This document shows positions 15,000 through 23,524 of a stretch of DNA of 64,000 nucleotides, piece by piece (position 1 is the first letter of the stretch; each line of letters opens with the position of its first letter). This DNA comes from Corynebacterium sp. TAE3-ERU12. GTDB taxonomy: Bacteria; Actinomycetota; Actinomycetes; Mycobacteriales; Mycobacteriaceae. The stretch covers positions 1,240,001-1,304,000 of the forward strand of contig NZ_JAHUTM010000001.1 of assembly GCF_019209905.1 (NCBI RefSeq), written 5' to 3'. Made by a program: the position numbers and the translations under genes. The notes below the pieces were generated by a model, which did not search any database, was not told the DNA's origin, and saw nothing but the letters and a program-made list of their open reading frames with translations.

Positions 15000-15064
15000 T
15001 TTTCGCTTGCCGACGGTGAGGGCTGGCTGTTTCGCCTTATGTTTAGGCGCACGAAAAGGAACGC

Positions 15065-15991
15065 ATGAGTACAGACAACACACCAACAACTGACCAATTC
15101 CGCCCCATTGTGCTGCGAGTGCTCGGCGACGGCCACGAGCGCGCGGGCCGTGATATCTGCGAGCTGGTGGCCGACTATCTCCAGCTGTCCGACGATGTCC
15201 GTGCAGAGACGATTTCTTCTGGCCAGAGCCGATACGTGAATCGAATCCAGTGGGCTTTCTCCGGGCTTACCATTGCAGGTCTGCTGGATCGTCCTAAGCG
15301 TGGCCGGTACCGGATCACTGAGGACGGTCGTGCCGTCGATAGCCGCGATCTGACTGAGTACACCGAAAAAGACATGCTGGAGTGGCCGGCGTGGCGGGAG
15401 TATCAGGAGGAAGTTGCGGCCCGCAAAAAGGCTTCTCCGAATACCAGCGATGTAGAAGCCACGGACCAATCGGACCCCATCGAAACGATGGCTGATGCTG
15501 AGGCGGCGTTTAACGCCCAGACGGAGACTGAGCTGCGCCGGAAGCTGCAGCAGGCCTCTCCTGGGTTTTTCGAAGATGCTGTCATTGATGTGTTGTGGGC
15601 GATGGGTTACGGCGGTTCCCATGGCGAGAAGAAACGTGTGGGCCGTTCCGGTGACGGTGGGGTAGACGGGATTATCAGTCAGGATGCTCTTGGCCTGACC
15701 AATATCTATATCCAGGCGAAGCGTTATGCCGATACCAATAAGGTGGGCGACCCGGAGATCCGCAACTTCATTGGTGCACTGGATTCCCGCAGGGCGAACC
15801 TGGGTGTTTTCATTACGACGTCGAGCTTCCAGCCTGCTGCTGTGCGTACTGCTGAACGGTACCGCCACGGCAAAATTATTCTCATTGACGGCCTGAAGCT
15901 CACGAGTTTGATGCTGTCTTACGGCGTTGCTGTGCATAAGAAGCGCGAGTTCACTCTTTACGAAGTCGATGAAGACTTCTTCGAGGAGTAA
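15065..15991 (+). CDS. mrr: Mrr-type restriction endonuclease (modification-dependent, type IV)
   Basis: Mrr enzymes cut DNA carrying foreign methylation. The 308-residue protein has an N-terminal winged-helix Mrr_N-like region (about 10-105; SRYVNRIQWAFSGLTIAGLLDRPKRGRYRITEDG) and a C-terminal PD-(D/E)xK catalytic domain of the Mrr QxK type: D201 in GDGGVDGII, then Q217-A-K219 in IYIQAKRY. The closing part (FIGALDSRRANLGVFITTSSFQPAA) is also typical. ATG 15065 has AAAAGGA upstream. It starts 66 bases after ctaB without a clear terminator between, so readthrough from ctaB is possible. It is the first gene of the accessory block. The methylation it recognises cannot be told from sequence. Confidence 0.88.
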   Translation: MSTDNTPTTDQFRPIVLRVLGDGHERAGRDICELVADYLQLSDDVRAETISSGQSRYVNRIQWAFSGLTIAGLLDRPKRGRYRITEDGRAVDSRDLTEYTEKDMLEWPAWREYQEEVAARKKASPNTSDVEATDQSDPIETMADAEAAFNAQTETELRRKLQQASPGFFEDAVIDVLWAMGYGGSHGEKKRVGRSGDGGVDGIISQDALGLTNIYIQAKRYADTNKVGDPEIRNFIGALDSRRANLGVFITTSSFQPAAVRTAERYRHGKIILIDGLKLTSLMLSYGVAVHKKREFTLYEVDEDFFEE

Positions 15992-16116: not shown

Positions 16117-19100
16117 ATGTCGTCTTTTGCTGAAGCATTGGTCCAACTTCGTGAAAATCAGCCTGCCGGGAAGTATGGCTTGGCTTTTGAGAAGTTGATG
16201 GTCAATTACTTCAAGAATGACCCGGTGCTCAGCACTGAGTATGACGAGGTCTGCCGGTGGGTGGATTGGAAGTATAACGGCGGCAAGGCCGACGCTGGTA
16301 TCGACTTGGTTGCCCGGCGTAGTGAGGATCAGCGGTGGGTGGCTATCCAGTGCAAGTTCTATAAGCCCACCACGACGGTGAGCAAGGCGAATCTGGACTC
16401 GTTCTTTGAGGCTTCTGGCCGTACTTTCCAGACCGATAATGGCACTGAGACCTTCGCCCAGCGGATGATTATTTCCACCACGGACCGGTGGAGTTCTAAT
16501 GCTGAGGCGATGCTGGAGAGCCAGCTCATCCCGACTAACCGCATCGGCACCGAGCATATTGCGAGCTCCCCGTTGGATTGGGATCTGACGTTCCCCGGTT
16601 CGGAGCTGAATATTCACCTGTCTCAGAAGGAGACCTTTGAGCCGCGTCCGCATCAGTCTGCGGCTATTGATGCGACCTTGAAGGGGTTTGCCGCCCATGA
16701 TCGCGGCAAGCTCATCATGGCGTGCGGTACGGGTAAGACTTTTACGTCTTTGCGGCTGGCGGAGCAGTTCGCCGAGGCCAATGGTGGTCGGGCGCGGGTG
16801 TTGTTCCTGGTGCCGTCGATTTCCTTGTTGTCGCAGACCTTGAAGGAGTGGACCGCCCAGGCGCGCCTGGACATGAAGGTCTACGCAGTGTGCTCGGATT
16901 CTAAGGTCTCGAAGAAGGCCGAGGATATCGCCGCATACGACTTGGAAGTGCCGGTGTCTACTGATGGTGCTGATATCGCCGAGCGATTCTCACACGGCAA
17001 GCGCGCTAAGGGCCTCCAGGTGGTGTTTTCCACCTACCAATCTTTGCCGGCTATCCATGATGCCCAGCAGCGTGGCCTTGAGGATTTCGATCTGGTTATT
17101 TGCGATGAGGCGCACCGCACCACAGGTGTGACCATTGCCGGCGAGGATGCGTCGAACTTCGTGCGGATTCATGACGCTGACTACATCAAGGCGGCAAAGC
17201 GGCTGTATATGACGGCGACTCCGAAGCTGTTCGACGATGAGGTTAAGGGCAAAGCTGAGGAGCATTCCGCCGAGGTGGCCTCGATGGACGATGAGGACAT
17301 CTACGGGCCGGAGTTCCATCGGCTTGGGTTCGGAGATGCCGTCGAGCAGGGCCTGTTGACCGATTACAAAGTCTTGGTCATGACTGTTGACGAATCTGTG
17401 GCAGCTGAGGCTCTGTCCCGGGGCGATGCTGGCGGCGTCAATCTGAGCTTGGCGTCTGCGATGATCGGCACCTGGAATGGTCTTGCGAAGCGTTCAGGTT
17501 CTGAGCAGGGTACGTCCGCAGGTTTCGATGAGGGTGCTGCCGCGATGCAGCGCACGGTTGCCTTCGCCAAGGACATTAAGACGTCGAAGTCGATTGTTGA
17601 GTCTTACCCGGCGCTGATTGACAACTATCAGCAGTCGCTGCGGGAGAGCGCGGCACTCAATGATGTGAGCCTGCACAATATTGATGTCCGGGTGAGGGCT
17701 CAGCATGTCGATGGGTCGATGAATGCGATGGAACGCAACTCCCGGCTGGGTTGGCTTGAAGCTGACGTCCCGGATAACGAAACCCGCATTCTTACTAATG
17801 CCCGGTGCTTGTCTGAGGGGGTGGATGTACCGGCCTTGGATGCGGTGGTGTTTTTCAACCCGCGCAATTCGATGGTGGATGTGGTCCAGTCAGTCGGGCG
17901 TGTCATGCGTAAGAGCAAAGGCAAGGATTATGGCTACATCATCCTTCCGGTCGCGGTTCCGCCGGGCAAGTCCCCTTCGGAAGCGTTGAACGATAACACC
18001 CGGTTCAAGGTTGTCTGGCAGATCCTCAATGCGCTTCGTGCCCATGATGATCGGTTCAATGCCAAGGTCAACTCCATTAGCCTCAACGAGTCCACACCAG
18101 ATGAGCTGCCGATCAAGCATGATCACACTGCAGATCCTCGTGAGCGTCTGCGGAAGGCTGAGGAGGATAGCGCCAACCACGCCTACGATCCAGATGACGT
18201 CACAGCGAAAACCCTCGCCCTGTTCTCTCTGGAGAAGTGGCAGGAGGCGATGTACGTCAAACTCGTCGACAAAGTTGGCGACCGCACGTACTGGGAAGAC
18301 TGGGCAGATGATGTCGCCGATATCGCCGCCGCCCAGGTAGAGCGCATCAAAACCCTCGTCGACGGGGCTGACCCGAAACTCCGCACAGAGTTTGAAGAGT
18401 TCGTTGAGGGCCTGCGCGGCAACCTCAATGACTCGATTTCCGAGGATGAGGCCATCGGCATGCTCTCACAGCACCTCATCACCGCGCCTGTGTTTAATGC
18501 CCTGTTCAGTGATTATGACTTCGCCCAGCACAACCCGGTATCCCGGGTGATGCAGCGCATGGTGGATGCTCTTGCCGATAAGCAGCTAGAAACTGAGACC
18601 GAGGGGCTAGAGAAGTTCTACAAGTCTGTGCGCGTGCGGGCCTCTGGTGTCACCAGTGCCTCGGGCAAGCAACAGGTCGTCAAAGACCTCTACGAACGGT
18701 TCTTCCGTAAAGCGTTCAAGAAGCAAGCAGATGCCCTGGGCATTGTCTACACCCCGGTAGAGATTGTCGACTTCATTATCCGGGCCGCCGATGACCTCAT
18801 GCAGGAACACTTCGGTAGGGGACTGACCGACGAAGGCGTACATATCCTCGACCCGTTCACTGGTACGGGCACATTCATGGTGCGCCTGCTGCAATCAGGA
18901 CGCATTAAGCCAGAAGATATGGCCCGCAAGTACGCCAACGAACTCCATGCCACAGAGATCATGCTCTTGGCGTACTACGTCGCAGCGGTCAATATCGAGA
19001 CCACCTACAACGCTTTAATCCGGGAACAGCAGAAGGCCGAGAACCCCGAAAGTGACTTAGACGTTCCGTACGTCACCTTTGACGGCATCGCCCTGGCAGA

Positions 19101-21108
19101 TACCTTCCAGATCCATGAAGACGACGACACCTTGGACATGGATGTCTTCGTGGAAAACAACGATGCCATCGAACGGCAAAAGAATTCACCCATCAACGTC
19201 ATCGTGGGCAACCCGCCGTACTCGGTCGGACAGGGCAGCGCCAACGACAATAACCAGAACCTCAAGTACCCGACGCTAGATAAGCGGATTGAACAGACCT
19301 ACGCAGCCCAGTCGACTGCTACGAATAAGAATTCGCTGTACGACTCCTATTTGCGTGCATTCCGATGGGCCACTGACCGCATTGGAAACGAAGGTGTCGT
19401 CGCCTTCGTATCCAACGGCGGCTGGATTGACGGTAACACCGCAGATGGAGTTCGCCTGTCCTTTGCCGAAGACTTCAGCGACATCTATGTCTTTAACCTA
19501 CGCGGAAATCAACGCACCGCAGGTGAGCTATCCCGCAAAGAGGGCGGGAAGGTTTTCGGATCGGGCAGCCGCAATACCGTTGCTATCACTATTGGCGTCA
19601 AACGAAGCAACAGTGCAGGATGCACAATCCATTATAAGGACATTGGCGACTATCTATCCGCCGACGAAAAACTCAAAATCGTCGACAACAGCCAGGTAAG
19701 CGAGATGGACTGGCGCGGCATTGATCCTAACTCCTACGGAGACTGGATTAGCCAAAGAGCAGAAGACTTCTTAACCTTCCCCGCCCTAGGAATAAAACGG
19801 GGGGATAACAGCCAACCAATTTTTGGCGTCTTTTCTCGCGGTGTTGCCACAGCTAGGGACGCTTGGGTAGTGAACTTCAGCAAGAAAAAACTAACCCACA
19901 ATGTCGAAGATATGGTCAGTTATTACAACGAAACTCTTCAATTACTAAATAGCGATCGAGGCAATAACAGAACCTTCAATGAAATACTTTACCGCAACAA
20001 GTCGCGCTTCAGTTGGAATAGAACCAACAAGAAAGACATCGAACGTGGCGTGAGTGTAAGCATCGATACCACAGGATTTCGAGAACTAAGTTATCGCCCT
20101 TTCATGCGGAGCCACCTATATCTTGACTTTTCCGCTAAACTTAACGATCAAATTTATCAAATAAGACATATTTTCCCCACACCACGCCACGATAACTACG
20201 GTATATCCATAAATTCTCGAGGATCGAGCGCTCCTTTTACCGCTTTTTCAACGAATTTAGTCCCGGATTTGCAAAGCGTTGCTGGCGCAGGTAACCCCGT
20301 TCAATTCTTCCCACGCTGGATTTGGGAACCGATAGAGGCAGAAGAGGGCGAACTCGATTTCGGCCTAGACCAAGCCTCCAGCGGTCCTGTCGGTACTGAG
20401 GGAGAGATCCGGGACGGATACCGCCGCGTTGACAACATCACCGACGAAATCCTGACTGAATACGAGCAGGCGTTGGGGGAGGTGTCTAAAGATGACATCT
20501 TCTACTTTGTCTACGCGCAGCTCCACGACCCGGAGTACCGCACCAAATACGCAGCAGATCTAAAGAAGATGCTGCCGCATATTGAGACCCCAACCGACCG
20601 CGCCAGGTTCGACAAACTCAGTGCTGCCGGCCGGGAATTGATGGATCTCCACATCAACTACGAGTCGATTGAGCCGTACCCAGTCACTGTGGATCTAAAG
20701 AAGACTGCTGATCCGGATGACCGGGAGACTTGGCGTGTCACCAAAATGAAGTGGGCCAAGACCACGGATGAGGAGACCGGCAAGAAGGTCAACGATGTGA
20801 CCACGCTTATCTACAACAAGCAGGTCACCATCCGGGACATCCCCGCAGAAGCTGACGAGTACATGCTCGGTTCCCGCTCAGCTATCGCCTGGCTCATTGA
20901 CCGCTACCAGGTGAAAAAGGACAAGAAGTCCGGGATCGTCAACGACCCCAACGACTGGGCAGACGAAGTCGGGAATCCGCGCTATATCGTCGACCTCATC
21001 GCCAAAGTCACCAGCGTCGCCTTGGAAACGGTCCGTATCGTTAACTCCCTTGAAGACAACAAGGTGGCCACTACAAACGCCCGAACCAGATCGTGCGGTG
21101 AAAGGTGA
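16117..21108 (+). CDS. Type ISP single-polypeptide restriction-modification enzyme (LlaGI/LlaBIII-like)
   Basis: Combines nuclease, DNA translocase, methyltransferase and specificity in one chain that methylates its site and cleaves unmethylated DNA after translocation. In the 1663 residues I see, in order: a Mrr-like nuclease (D63 in AGIDLVA, Q78-C79-K80); an SF2 helicase with Walker A GTGKT at 204-208, DEAH at 330-333, MTATP, and a second RecA-like domain (VQSVGRVMR); a gamma-class N6-adenine methyltransferase with motif I DPFTGTG at 912-918 and motif IV NPPY at 1032-1035; then a target-recognition region, about 1160-1390. That last region is strikingly AT-rich (20 G+C of 60 bases at 19921-19980, against 37 of 60 at 18301-18360). 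There is no ribosome-binding site; CATACT 7 bases before ATG suggests leaderless transcription. The frame is intact. Confidence 0.93.
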   Translation: MSSFAEALVQLRENQPAGKYGLAFEKLMVNYFKNDPVLSTEYDEVCRWVDWKYNGGKADAGIDLVARRSEDQRWVAIQCKFYKPTTTVSKANLDSFFEASGRTFQTDNGTETFAQRMIISTTDRWSSNAEAMLESQLIPTNRIGTEHIASSPLDWDLTFPGSELNIHLSQKETFEPRPHQSAAIDATLKGFAAHDRGKLIMACGTGKTFTSLRLAEQFAEANGGRARVLFLVPSISLLSQTLKEWTAQARLDMKVYAVCSDSKVSKKAEDIAAYDLEVPVSTDGADIAERFSHGKRAKGLQVVFSTYQSLPAIHDAQQRGLEDFDLVICDEAHRTTGVTIAGEDASNFVRIHDADYIKAAKRLYMTATPKLFDDEVKGKAEEHSAEVASMDDEDIYGPEFHRLGFGDAVEQGLLTDYKVLVMTVDESVAAEALSRGDAGGVNLSLASAMIGTWNGLAKRSGSEQGTSAGFDEGAAAMQRTVAFAKDIKTSKSIVESYPALIDNYQQSLRESAALNDVSLHNIDVRVRAQHVDGSMNAMERNSRLGWLEADVPDNETRILTNARCLSEGVDVPALDAVVFFNPRNSMVDVVQSVGRVMRKSKGKDYGYIILPVAVPPGKSPSEALNDNTRFKVVWQILNALRAHDDRFNAKVNSISLNESTPDELPIKHDHTADPRERLRKAEEDSANHAYDPDDVTAKTLALFSLEKWQEAMYVKLVDKVGDRTYWEDWADDVADIAAAQVERIKTLVDGADPKLRTEFEEFVEGLRGNLNDSISEDEAIGMLSQHLITAPVFNALFSDYDFAQHNPVSRVMQRMVDALADKQLETETEGLEKFYKSVRVRASGVTSASGKQQVVKDLYERFFRKAFKKQADALGIVYTPVEIVDFIIRAADDLMQEHFGRGLTDEGVHILDPFTGTGTFMVRLLQSGRIKPEDMARKYANELHATEIMLLAYYVAAVNIETTYNALIREQQKAENPESDLDVPYVTFDGIALADTFQIHEDDDTLDMDVFVENNDAIERQKNSPINVIVGNPPYSVGQGSANDNNQNLKYPTLDKRIEQTYAAQSTATNKNSLYDSYLRAFRWATDRIGNEGVVAFVSNGGWIDGNTADGVRLSFAEDFSDIYVFNLRGNQRTAGELSRKEGGKVFGSGSRNTVAITIGVKRSNSAGCTIHYKDIGDYLSADEKLKIVDNSQVSEMDWRGIDPNSYGDWISQRAEDFLTFPALGIKRGDNSQPIFGVFSRGVATARDAWVVNFSKKKLTHNVEDMVSYYNETLQLLNSDRGNNRTFNEILYRNKSRFSWNRTNKKDIERGVSVSIDTTGFRELSYRPFMRSHLYLDFSAKLNDQIYQIRHIFPTPRHDNYGISINSRGSSAPFTAFSTNLVPDLQSVAGAGNPVQFFPRWIWEPIEAEEGELDFGLDQASSGPVGTEGEIRDGYRRVDNITDEILTEYEQALGEVSKDDIFYFVYAQLHDPEYRTKYAADLKKMLPHIETPTDRARFDKLSAAGRELMDLHINYESIEPYPVTVDLKKTADPDDRETWRVTKMKWAKTTDEETGKKVNDVTTLIYNKQVTIRDIPAEADEYMLGSRSAIAWLIDRYQVKKDKKSGIVNDPNDWADEVGNPRYIVDLIAKVTSVALETVRIVNSLEDNKVATTNARTRSCGER

Positions 21109-21539: not shown

Positions 21540-21710
21540 CTAGTTACGTTGATTGCGCCGTCGACGAGCAGCCCGTTCGTTGTCAGTGTAGTTAGAAAAC
21601 CCAAAGGTCAAACGCGGTGCGTCACGGAAGTATAGCGCGGGATTTTCCTGGAGCAAACGGATCCGATCTTGACGGTGAGCATCGTAAAGATCGCCCTTAC
21701 CACTCATCAT
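21540..21710 (-). CDS. Small basic protein of unknown function, second gene of the GAF operon
   Basis: A 56-codon frame overlaps the 3' end of the GAF-protein gene by 14 bases in another frame, the arrangement of translationally coupled partners. GAGGGA lies upstream of the tandem ATGATG; I use the first ATG (21710), the second (21707) being possible. The product begins MMSGKGDLYDAHRQDRIRLLQ, continues with NPALYFRDAPRLTFGFSNYTDNE, and ends in an Arg-rich tail (RAARRRRNQRN). It has no membrane segment and no Cys. I do not recognise a family. Reasons to believe it is real are the overlap, the ribosome-binding site and a non-random composition with an amphipathic middle and basic end. It could modulate or bind the GAF protein, or bind nucleic acid through the tail; both are inference. 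Confidence 0.6.
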   Translation of the reverse strand: MMSGKGDLYDAHRQDRIRLLQENPALYFRDAPRLTFGFSNYTDNERAARRRRNQRN

Positions 21711-22695
21711 CGGCACTTCCCTCTAGTCGTTCAGATGTTTCGAGTTGATCTTGACCCATGTTAGAAGCCGGGACGCCGATTCCGCCGTCACGGTCGTCGG
21801 CGGCGTGTTGCCCGGCGTCAGCTCCTAGCGGACCTATGGGAACAGCGTCGTTCTCAGCGTTTTTTCCAACATAAGTCAAGGATAGCAAAGAAGCAAACTG
21901 ATTCAAGAGAGCGGTTCCGTGGAACTCATCGATGTCTCCGGCGTTTTTTGAATCGACAGTCAAAAGACCAAATAGCTCGTCGCCCGTACTAACCGGCATG
22001 ACAGCAAAACAGTCGTAGTCTAATGCTTTCTCAGAAGTCTCTTCTAATTCACTCGTATCCTTTATATATCGACCTTGGTTATTTTCGATCGCGACACGAA
22101 GAGTTCTATCGTTCACTGTAAAAATGCGCTTAGAGTGATGATTTAATCGACCATCATGACCATATTTCGAAGCACTAAGCTCAACTGGAGACGTATTACT
22201 GACTTCAAAAAGATTTGCTCGAACACCTTCAGGTGGACCAATACGTTCTCTAACGGACGCTAGAATCGCTCGGCGGGCAGCGGCAATCTCTGTGTCCCGC
22301 TCTACTTTCTTATTAGTGTGTAAGGCGTGACTAATTGCCTGAGTAGTGTCGGTAAGCGCGAAAATGATTGACCTTACAGCTTCTTCCTGAATCTCGCTTC
22401 GCTCTTCCTCAACGTCTCTATCGCGACGTTCACTGAGCATATTAAGGCCAAAGCAAATTGCTATAAGAATAAAAATTAATGCAACTATCCATATCCTGCC
22501 ATTGCTAATTTGTGCACCAGCAAAACAAGATAGAACTACGATAATGAAATTGAGAACGTTGGGGTGGACACTAGCAATATATCTCGCCCATGTGGGCTCC
22601 CGAAGAATGGGCTCATTCTGCCCGCCCCCTTTTAGTGCATGGCTTAGAAGACTTCTGAGCTTTTGACCGATAACGCCAAATTTCGATTCATTCAT
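21697..22695 (-). CDS. Membrane-anchored GAF-domain protein of unknown function
   Basis: A 332-residue protein with two membrane helices (about 46-63 and 67-88) separated by a very short loop, a charged helical linker likely to be coiled (RRDRDVEEERSEIQEEAVRS, about 90-130), a GAF-like domain (about 140-290; best seen in DYDCFAVMPVSTGDELFGLLTVDSKNAGDID...FASLLSLTYVG) and a polar, probably disordered tail. GAF domains bind small ligands such as cyclic nucleotides, hemes or redox cofactors; no ligand can be assigned and no output domain is visible. ATG 22695 has AGGAG 6 bases upstream. The gene is AT-rich (19 G+C of 60 at 22441-22500), unlike the backbone, indicating transfer. Next to two restriction genes, a defence role is a reasonable guess but unproven. 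Confidence 0.8.
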   Translation of the reverse strand: MNESKFGVIGQKLRSLLSHALKGGGQNEPILREPTWARYIASVHPNVLNFIIVVLSCFAGAQISNGRIWIVALIFILIAICFGLNMLSERRDRDVEEERSEIQEEAVRSIIFALTDTTQAISHALHTNKKVERDTEIAAARRAILASVRERIGPPEGVRANLFEVSNTSPVELSASKYGHDGRLNHHSKRIFTVNDRTLRVAIENNQGRYIKDTSELEETSEKALDYDCFAVMPVSTGDELFGLLTVDSKNAGDIDEFHGTALLNQFASLLSLTYVGKNAENDAVPIGPLGADAGQHAADDRDGGIGVPASNMGQDQLETSERLEGSADDEW

Positions 22696-23429
22696 TCTAT
22701 GCTCCTATTCCCGCTATTGCGCTTCATCAAAGATTTATTTAATTGCATTTCACATTTCTTTAACCCTTTGCAACGAAGATAGTACTGGTGACTACAATAA
22801 TGCTCGTCATGTCGACCGATTTTTACAACATAGCGAGGTTTTTGGGATTAACTTAAGTCCACTAAAAACATTTTACCAAGTGCTGTGATTGATACGCGAA
22901 AGATGAAAATACATAACCGATACTTATTGCCGTCGAAAGTACTAAGAACTTTAGCAAGATCCATCAGCCAACAAAAGTAGAATTCGTTTTCTAGCAGAGC
23001 AAAATGAGGTTTTCAGTTACTTTTTACGCCATCCGAAAAACTTTTTTGACTCTTTGACTATTTCCGACATGAATCACAGTCAGGCTAAATCTTTCGGGCC
23101 ATCCAAAACTTTGCAATGAGTCGATTCGAAATATTTTCGTATAGAGACTGAATTTCCTAAGGACCAATTCTTATTTATGGAATAACCGGCTTCTCTACAC
23201 ATCTTTAAACTCGTGATTTTCTAAGGCTTAGCGTAACACTCTCCCGTAGTAGACCTATCTTAACTGCACTAACAGACTTGGAAACCGACAATCTAAAATA
23301 AACAATAAGTAATGTTCGCTAAGCCGCTCCTGATCGTTCCTCCGGTAGATACATTCTATACTTCTTTTGTTGTTTGTCTCATCTACGCCTCACTTACTGA
23401 GGCGGTGCAGCAACCTTACGAGTACACCA
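22696..23429. other. AT-rich region without genes
   Basis: About 730 bases of AT-rich sequence (20 G+C of 60 at 22861-22920) with stops in all frames. It must hold the promoter of the minus-strand GAF operon, but I cannot pick a convincing -35/-10 pair among many AT-rich matches. No tRNA, integrase or CRISPR repeat is visible. A short frame at 23312-23515 runs through a terminator hairpin and is rejected as a gene. The region may contain decayed or regulatory DNA brought in with the island. Confidence 0.6.
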
Positions 23430-23430
23430 A

Positions 23431-23464
23431 CCCCGCCCCGAGAAATCTCGGAGCGGGCTTTTCA
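23431..23464 (+). terminator. Plus-strand terminator upstream of the ctaA 3' end
   Basis: An 11-position stem with one mismatch (cccgccccgag with ctcggagcggg, arms 23431-23441 and 23447-23457) and a short loop is followed by CTTTTC on the plus strand. No plus-strand gene lies directly before it. In the ancestral order it would have been the terminator of ctaB, now separated by the inserted block. Confidence 0.6.
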
Positions 23465-23524
23465 GGATTCACGCCAACCAGCAACCACCGTCGGCAAGCA
23501 GGTCGGCGAGGCTAGCTCACCGGG

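What the first reader, a model, noticed from the sequence alone, without database searches (positions are those of the whole stretch)
21540..22695. Uncharacterised two-gene operon: membrane GAF protein plus 56-residue basic protein
Seen: two minus-strand genes overlap by 14 bases, both with ribosome-binding sites, both AT-rich in a G+C-rich genome. The first encodes two membrane helices, a charged helical linker and a GAF-like domain, with no kinase, cyclase or nuclease output. The second is a small protein with an Arg-rich end. Inference: a sensor and effector or regulator pair; the location beside two restriction systems makes a phage-defence or island-control role worth testing. I do not recognise the pair as a described system.
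Basis: partly seen in the sequence, partly recalled or inferred. Interest (0 to 1): 0.66.

Follow-up and report, generated by a model that had tools for sequence, protein, structure and literature searches.

The report
Membrane GAF protein with small partner
A two-gene cassette scattered through Corynebacterium genomes pairs a membrane-anchored GAF protein with a small basic protein; it most resembles a toxin and its antidote, a reading that still has to be tested at the bench.

Summary
Window 21697-22695 (-) encodes a 332-aa protein (predicted: two membrane helices, long helix, GAF fold) that overlaps by 14 nt a 56-aa basic ORF (21540-21710, -). The small ORF is a real gene: in all 242 held Corynebacterium genomes, 12 of 16 intact GAF genes have it directly downstream; the other four, a similar group, lack it. 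The two co-vary (Mantel r 0.79); own/G083a dN/dS is 0.20.

At home the pair lies in an 8.5-kb island with two restriction systems, apparently inserted in the ctaB/ctaA terminator. Elsewhere it sits in core intergenic sites, 11 of 30 beside a tRNA. Only 5 of 16 intact loci have any defence-type gene I could name within about 5 kb, so location is a weak argument for defence.

Similarly built genes in two other genera are followed by Panacea antitoxins, and a GAF+TM toxin neutralised by Panacea (toxFtsL-D9) is published. I favour a toxin-antitoxin-like cassette with another antitoxin type (0.5).

Against: the four-genome group keeps GAF alone under strong purifying selection; some GAF-less small genes keep a frozen core; no toxicity test; homology to the Panacea-paired proteins was shown only in the GAF domain.

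The parts
21697..22695 (-). membrane-hairpin, long-helix, GAF protein, 332 aa; proposed toxin-like partner
   Evidence: AF2; GAF fold; 16 intact loci in 14 of 242 genus genomes
21540..21710 (-). 56-aa basic protein with conserved core (D, R, LL, P, YF, F.F); proposed antitoxin-like partner; overlaps the GAF gene by 14 nt
   Evidence: dN/dS 0.20 against G083a; co-variation
22696..23470 (.). AT-rich (GC 0.396) stretch upstream of the GAF gene; promoter-like hits at chance level; no ORF over 50 aa on the - strand
16117..21108 (+). type ISP restriction-modification enzyme (island neighbour, convergent)
   Evidence: Pfam, PADLOC
15065..15991 (+). Mrr-type restriction endonuclease (island neighbour)
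   Evidence: Pfam
15005..15029 (+). left half of what looks like the split ctaB/ctaA terminator hairpin: left island boundary
   Evidence: inverted repeat; fold of joined flanks
23475..23499 (+). right half of the split hairpin: right island boundary

Best explanation
A two-gene toxin-antitoxin-like cassette carried as island cargo. The large protein would sit in the membrane by a two-helix hairpin, with a long helix and a GAF domain on the cytoplasmic side. Kept in check it is harmless; released, or when the GAF domain senses a signal, it would harm the membrane or the division machinery, as the published GAF+TM toxin toxFtsL-D9 does to division. The downstream 56-aa basic protein would bind it and hold it off. 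Shown here: a real, conserved, co-varying gene pair; the GAF fold (by prediction); its spread over many chromosomal sites; Panacea antitoxin genes in the partner position behind two similarly built genes. Inferred: membrane topology, toxicity, neutralisation, direct binding, GAF ligand, and any role in phage defence.
For: (1) 12 of 16 intact GAF genes, and 12 of 12 outside one group, have the small gene 3', from a 32-nt overlap to a 93-nt gap depending on the start chosen. G083 has three diverged pairs at three sites, each with its own small gene. (2) Pairwise distances of the two proteins correlate: r 0.79, 0 of 5000 permutations, n = 12; descent as one unit would also give this. (3) Small frame under purifying selection in own/G083a (dN/dS 0.20, one-sided P 3.4e-6). 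(4) Outside the genus the GAF profile matched 9 genomes at E <= 1e-5: 5 of 225 others in the class sample and, besides G123, 4 of the family sample of 231. Seven of the 9 are stand-alone genes of about 260-350 aa with hydrophobic N-terminal stretches and a GAF domain; L171 looks frame-broken; one is a 1483-aa frame. Behind two of the seven (L172, L174) is a SocA_Panacea gene (E 1e-14 and 3e-14). (5) PMC10440598 (passages, and part 1 of 2 of section 11): Gelidibacter mesophilus toxFtsL-D9, 281 aa, GAF plus membrane helices, toxic in E. coli, neutralised by Panacea; the paper predicts new pairs from partner swaps. (6) L174's gene and its Panacea gene are in a viral-contig record beside repressor-like and ImmA-like genes named by eye. 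(7) Cassette-like placement: many sites, 11 of 30 small-gene loci beside a tRNA 3' end, with a repeated tRNA end beyond the small gene in 4 loci of one lineage (not tested against chance).
Against: Four of 16 intact GAF genes (G200, G150, G115, G755) have no small-gene match at E <= 0.01 in their genomes, yet evolve under strong purifying selection (dN/dS 0.09 and 0.05 in the two of four compared pairs that were not saturated); three of them follow a flotillin-like gene (by eye). An active toxin without antitoxin should not look so. GAF-less small genes are conserved in G136/G026, so the small protein may have its own job. In the kroppenstedtii group the small gene shows no constraint (G013/G123 0.72, P 0.31; G123/G077 0.83; G013/G077 two nonsynonymous and no synonymous change) while the GAF gene does (0.22). 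Homology to the Panacea-paired proteins was shown only in the GAF domain. More loss of GAF than of the small gene could follow from gene length (about 880 against 160 nt). Simple hydropathy sees two separate N-terminal stretches in 6 of the 11 Corynebacterium proteins tested, one in 4 and none in L017. No toxicity data; toxFtsL-D9's sequence was not at hand. PADLOC has no match.
Confidence: 0.5

Rival explanations
1. A non-toxic membrane sensor and its regulator: the GAF domain binds a small molecule and the basic small protein passes the state on, for instance by binding nucleic acid or a housekeeping protein.
For: The GAF gene is kept without the small gene in four genomes under strong purifying selection, three of them behind a flotillin-like gene. 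All 12 paired small proteins are basic, net +3 to +9 with the longest start. The conserved polar set R141, R159, S188, R190, D213, Y227, D248 (12 to 14 of 14 rows) could line a ligand pocket.
Against: No output domain found. The pair is scattered and often broken, as accessory cargo rather than core signalling. Panacea genes take the partner position in two similarly built relatives.
Confidence: 0.25
2. An abortive-infection phage-defence cassette: the GAF protein senses infection and damages the membrane; the small protein keeps it off.
For: At this locus it shares an island with Mrr and type ISP restriction systems. G041's copy is near a type II restriction-modification pair and G013's near a PDC-S19 candidate gene. 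A Panacea-paired relative is in a viral-contig record. The best viral fold match is a membrane protein of Gordonia phage Finkle (Foldseek E 4.4e-12).
Against: For 11 of 16 intact loci I could name no defence-type gene within about 5 kb (ORFs of 120-1500 aa, one mad2 match untraced, no control loci). No PADLOC match to the pair. No tblastn match of the window protein in phages or plasmids.
Confidence: 0.15
3. The small protein is the functional unit with a GAF-independent target, and the GAF gene is a frequently lost accessory.
For: 12 of 30 small genes have no detectable GAF gene (one, G040, lies at a contig edge) and 6 have a broken one or a remnant. In G136a/G026a a 30-codon core shows 6 synonymous and no amino-acid change, and BLAST did not align the roughly 260 nt before or 180 nt after the small-gene block.
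Against: Co-variation with the GAF protein where both exist. Some GAF-less small genes are themselves broken or eroded (G757, G050, G743, G179). An antitoxin kept against incoming toxins would look the same.
Confidence: 0.1

Closest known systems
toxFtsL-D9:PanA of Gelidibacter mesophilus (PMC10440598; passages and part 1 of 2 of section 11 read)
   Same: Toxin of about 280 aa with a GAF domain and membrane helices (described there as an alpha-helical FtsL-like region predicted to be in the membrane and to dimerise), in a two-gene pair.
   Different: Its antitoxin is a Panacea domain; here the partner is a 56-aa basic protein with no Pfam match. The sequences were not compared: that protein was not in reach of the tools.
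Membrane-GAF plus Panacea pairs in two other genera of the same family (L172, L174, found here)
   Same: N-terminal hydrophobic stretches, C-terminal GAF, gene order, length; GAF profile E 2.2e-7 and 4.4e-6.
   Different: Panacea partner (Pfam E 1e-14 and 3e-14); homology beyond the GAF domain not shown.
PDE6 and its inhibitory gamma subunit (analogy; the role of Pgamma is recalled, not from a call)
   Same: A small basic protein held against a GAF-containing protein; PDE6C-Pgamma structures are among the Foldseek hits.
   Different: No phosphodiesterase here and no shown homology of the small proteins; an analogy of mechanism only.

Membership tests
GAF domain family | GAF fold | tested here: met
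   VIA-align Z up to 16.1 on the AF2 model; the Foldseek PDB hits shown are led by GAF proteins
GAF domain family | Pfam PF01590 at its gathering score | tested here: not met
   14.6 bits against 22.4 for the window protein
GAF domain family, cyclic-nucleotide, bilin or fRMsr subtypes | NKFDE-like motif or a conserved Cys (motifs recalled) | tested here: not met
   no NKFDE-like match in any of the 14 rows of A1; best Cys column 6 of 14
PanAT toxin-antitoxin systems (toxFtsL-D9 kind) | Panacea-domain antitoxin | tested here: not met
   P0002 has no Pfam match at E <= 1
PanAT toxin-antitoxin systems (toxFtsL-D9 kind) | GAF plus membrane-helix toxin architecture | tested here: met
   (helices 45-65 and from 68; GAF 158-273) and hydropathy of the window protein; prediction only
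PanAT toxin-antitoxin systems (toxFtsL-D9 kind) | sequence homology to toxFtsL-D9 | not testable with these tools
   its sequence was not held or reached
Type II toxin-antitoxin system (general) | two adjacent, often overlapping, conserved genes | tested here: met
   12 of 16 intact loci
Type II toxin-antitoxin system (general) | toxicity of one product and neutralisation by the other | not testable with these tools
   needs an experiment
Known anti-phage defence systems (PADLOC-DB 2.0.0) | profile match of either protein | tested here: not met
   no family at E <= 1 for P0001 or P0002
Known anti-phage defence systems (PADLOC-DB 2.0.0) | usual neighbourhood of defence genes | tested here: inconclusive
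   5 of 16 intact loci have some defence-type gene within about 5 kb, two of the five by eye only; no background rate measured

The most novel reading that the evidence does not exclude
The small protein is a new, lineage-restricted antitoxin class whose roughly 30-residue core (a short helix followed by an FGF-type end) is the neutralising part. It moves with membrane GAF toxins as a minimal cassette between tRNA-linked and other intergenic sites, and is kept as stand-alone immunity after the toxin is lost. Across actinobacteria, membrane-GAF toxins would then swap between unrelated antidotes: Panacea in some, small basic proteins in others.
Probability: 0.3. Interest if true: 0.7.

Novelty: new variant of a known kind. 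Interest (0 to 1): 0.52.

Why it matters
If true, it adds an antitoxin type to the GAF/membrane toxins, of which I found one tested example in print (and the passages read). It would give Corynebacterium a compact conflict module whose 56-aa partner is small enough to dissect residue by residue, and the GAF-less small genes with a frozen core would make antitoxin retention directly testable. Even if it is not a toxin, a conserved gene pair that the four family libraries do not name is worth an experiment.

Tried and rejected
Defence by location: not accepted as a general argument (5 of 16 intact loci with any defence-type gene; no control loci). Chance small ORF: rejected by conservation and by dN/dS in most pairs where it could be computed, but the kroppenstedtii group alone shows no constraint on it. 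Asymmetric loss as proof of an antitoxin: not sufficient, since gene length alone could explain it. Enzymatic GAF (fRMsr, bilin, cNMP motif): no conserved Cys, no NKFDE-like motif. Small ORFs behind GAF genes in other actinobacteria: only L171's resembles the family by shuffling (6.5 bits, 0 of 1000), L169's weakly (28 of 1000), L166, L168 and L167 not (245, 70 and 986 of 1000); suggestive at best, and the small-protein profile itself had not found L171's genome. Outside the genus that profile gave one weak hit (G458, E 0.007), not followed up. Solved structures: no match to the small-protein profile at E <= 5. Phages and plasmids: nothing for P0001 or a GAF-less small protein; nothing in phages for L174, L166, L167, L173, L171; nothing in plasmids for L174, L171's small protein or the pair's DNA. 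Genome contigs with P0001: none; with A1: 8 loci, all titled Corynebacterium. Viral contigs with A1 and with L171's small protein: none. AF2 of the small protein is of low confidence (pLDDT 68), so I made no fold search with it. Rfam on 14-25 kb: none at gathering score. The 286-aa ORF in the GAF place of G111: best Pfam E 0.023, below cut-off. PMC8832971 (passages) does not mention GAF.

Full report
What is there. On the minus strand, a 332-aa ORF (21697-22695) overlaps by 14 nt a 56-aa ORF (21540-21710); both have plausible ribosome-binding sites. The AF2 model (9 sequences, mean pLDDT 73.4, pTM 0.58) shows a helical hairpin (45-65, then from 68) whose second helix runs on to residue 125, another helix (130-151) and a GAF domain (158-273); most of the last 30-odd residues are below pLDDT 50. 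Comparison with solved structures supports the GAF fold (Z up to 16.1; Foldseek), although Pfam GAF falls below its cut-off. The family has no NKFDE-like motif and no conserved cysteine (those motifs are recalled). By simple hydropathy, 6 of 11 Corynebacterium proteins tested show two separate N-terminal stretches, 4 show one and L017 none. The small protein is modelled with low confidence as helices over its motif and over its basic tail.

Is the pair real? I searched all 242 held genomes of the genus. It is Corynebacterium: the contigs of G041, G013, G123, G062, G167, G741, G115 and G755 have the lengths of the named Corynebacterium records. The GAF profile matches 19 of 242 genomes at E <= 1e-5: 16 intact genes in 14 genomes and broken ones in 5 (G063, G129, G142, G117, G734). 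The small-protein profile matches 26 of 242 genomes at 30 places at E <= 0.01. Twelve of these follow an intact GAF gene; six follow a broken one or a remnant (the five above plus G090); twelve have no GAF detectable nearby (G040 lies at a contig edge and cannot be judged). The four intact GAF genes without small gene (G200, G150, G115, G755) are close in sequence and share a C-terminal tail; I made no tree. Distances of the two proteins correlate over the 12 pairs (r 0.79, 0 of 5000 permutations), which joint descent also explains. dN/dS of the small gene is 0.20 for own/G083a and 0.11 for G111/G094. Against this, G013/G123 gives 0.72, G123/G077 0.83, and G013/G077 two nonsynonymous and no synonymous change.

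GAF-less small genes. G136 and G026 share two such loci. At the first, a block that holds the small gene is 82% identical, while the roughly 260 nt before and 180 nt after it were not aligned by BLAST. A 30-codon core has 6 synonymous and no amino-acid change; the ends vary (one-sided P 0.006 for an excess of synonymous change, 0.033 at the second locus). Others are eroded or frameshifted (G757, G050, G743, G179). So some are maintained and some decay. That GAF is lost more often than the small gene could follow from its length alone.

Where it lies. At home the pair shares an 8.5-kb island (GC 0.525 against 0.626 for the rest of the window) with an Mrr and a type ISP restriction enzyme. Joining the two edges gives a hairpin with a 14-bp perfect stem (-46.7 kcal/mol for the joined stretch, no shuffled control), so the island apparently sits in the loop of a terminator between the convergent genes ctaB and ctaA. 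Relatives such as L142, L144, L145 and L148 show ctaA and ctaB convergent without an island, and L147, L149, L151, L152 and L154 have a qor-like gene between (names by eye). Elsewhere the pair lies in core intergenic sites named by eye, for example guaB3-guaA, near pncA, near lysC, and GAF-less copies between rplO and secY. Of 30 small-gene loci, 11 have a tRNA whose 3' end faces the small gene or pair within about 1.1 kb. In four of one lineage (G013, G123, G077, G757) 26-39 nt of the tRNA 3' end are repeated just beyond the small gene, like attachment sites. The tRNA excess was not tested against chance.

Defence neighbours. A repeat without G041's methylase and restriction enzyme showed all 11 remaining families. 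Traced: type II restriction-modification at G041; PDC-S19, a candidate defence gene, at G013, 3.5 kb from the GAF gene; Pycsar-cyclase profiles on a 511-aa gene of G123 and G013, whose counterparts also stand by G077, G757 and G142 (by eye), so probably a resident gene. One mad2 match was not traced. By eye: a Panacea-like plus Doc-like pair 4.6 kb from the GAF gene in G083b (PADLOC gives the Doc-like ORF weak PDC-S23 matches), and AbiE-like fragments by G115. With the window itself that is 5 of 16 loci with some defence-type gene. No random-locus control was made.

Relatives elsewhere. Outside the genus the GAF profile matched 9 genomes at E <= 1e-5. Seven carry stand-alone membrane-GAF genes (hydropathy: two separate stretches in L167, L169, L172, L173 and L174, one merged in L166, one in L168). 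L171 looks frame-broken, with a small gene behind it that faintly resembles the family (6.5 bits, 0 of 1000 shuffles), although the small-protein profile had not found that genome. L172 and L174 are followed by Panacea genes; L173 by a different 116-aa ORF. Profile-profile comparison joins the outgroup to the family over the GAF domain only (probability 99.3). L174's pair is also in a viral-contig record. In print, toxFtsL-D9 (GAF plus membrane helices) is a validated toxin neutralised by Panacea that delocalises FtsZ (PMC10440598, passages and part 1 of 2 of section 11). A full-text search for 'toxFtsL' found only that paper. Three searches on GAF domain with Corynebacterium, anti-phage or abortive-infection terms held 87, 3 and 741 papers, of which 15, 3 and 20 were listed; none of those titles or abstract starts describes this pair.

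Reading. The anatomy, the co-varying overlapping pair, its spread over many sites and the Panacea partner of similarly built genes are best explained by a toxin-antitoxin-like module with a different antitoxin. The group that keeps the GAF gene alone under strong constraint is the chief objection: in it the protein must be harmless, or controlled otherwise. No step of toxicity, binding or sensing has been shown.

Noticed in passing
window 15005-15029 and 23475-23499: The two edges of the 8.5-kb island look like the two halves of the ctaB/ctaA terminator hairpin, split by the insertion.
   Followed up: yes
L125, L126, L129, L110: tRNA-Thr 3' end repeated (26-39 nt) just beyond the small gene: att-like repeats enclosing only this cassette or its remnant; no integrase gene seen between them.
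   Followed up: partly
L117, L118, L119, L120: GAF gene without small gene; its C-terminal tail ends LAITDAELVLED, faintly like the start of the small protein's core (TDA...); a fused remnant is conceivable, untested. In three of the four it follows a flotillin-like gene (by eye).
   Followed up: no
L116:2424-3376: A Panacea-like ORF followed by a Doc-like ORF (by eye) 4.6 kb from the G083b GAF pair: an ordinary-looking toxin-antitoxin pair nearby.
   Followed up: partly
L123:8588-9445: In G111 an unrelated 286-aa ORF without a Pfam match at cut-off stands where the GAF gene would be, upstream of an intact small gene.
   Followed up: partly
L121 (G142): GAF gene interrupted by about 2.6 kb that includes transposase-like ORFs (by eye); small gene intact.
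   Followed up: no
window 22696-23470: 775 nt of unusually AT-rich DNA (GC 0.396) without a clear gene between the GAF gene and ctaA.
   Followed up: no
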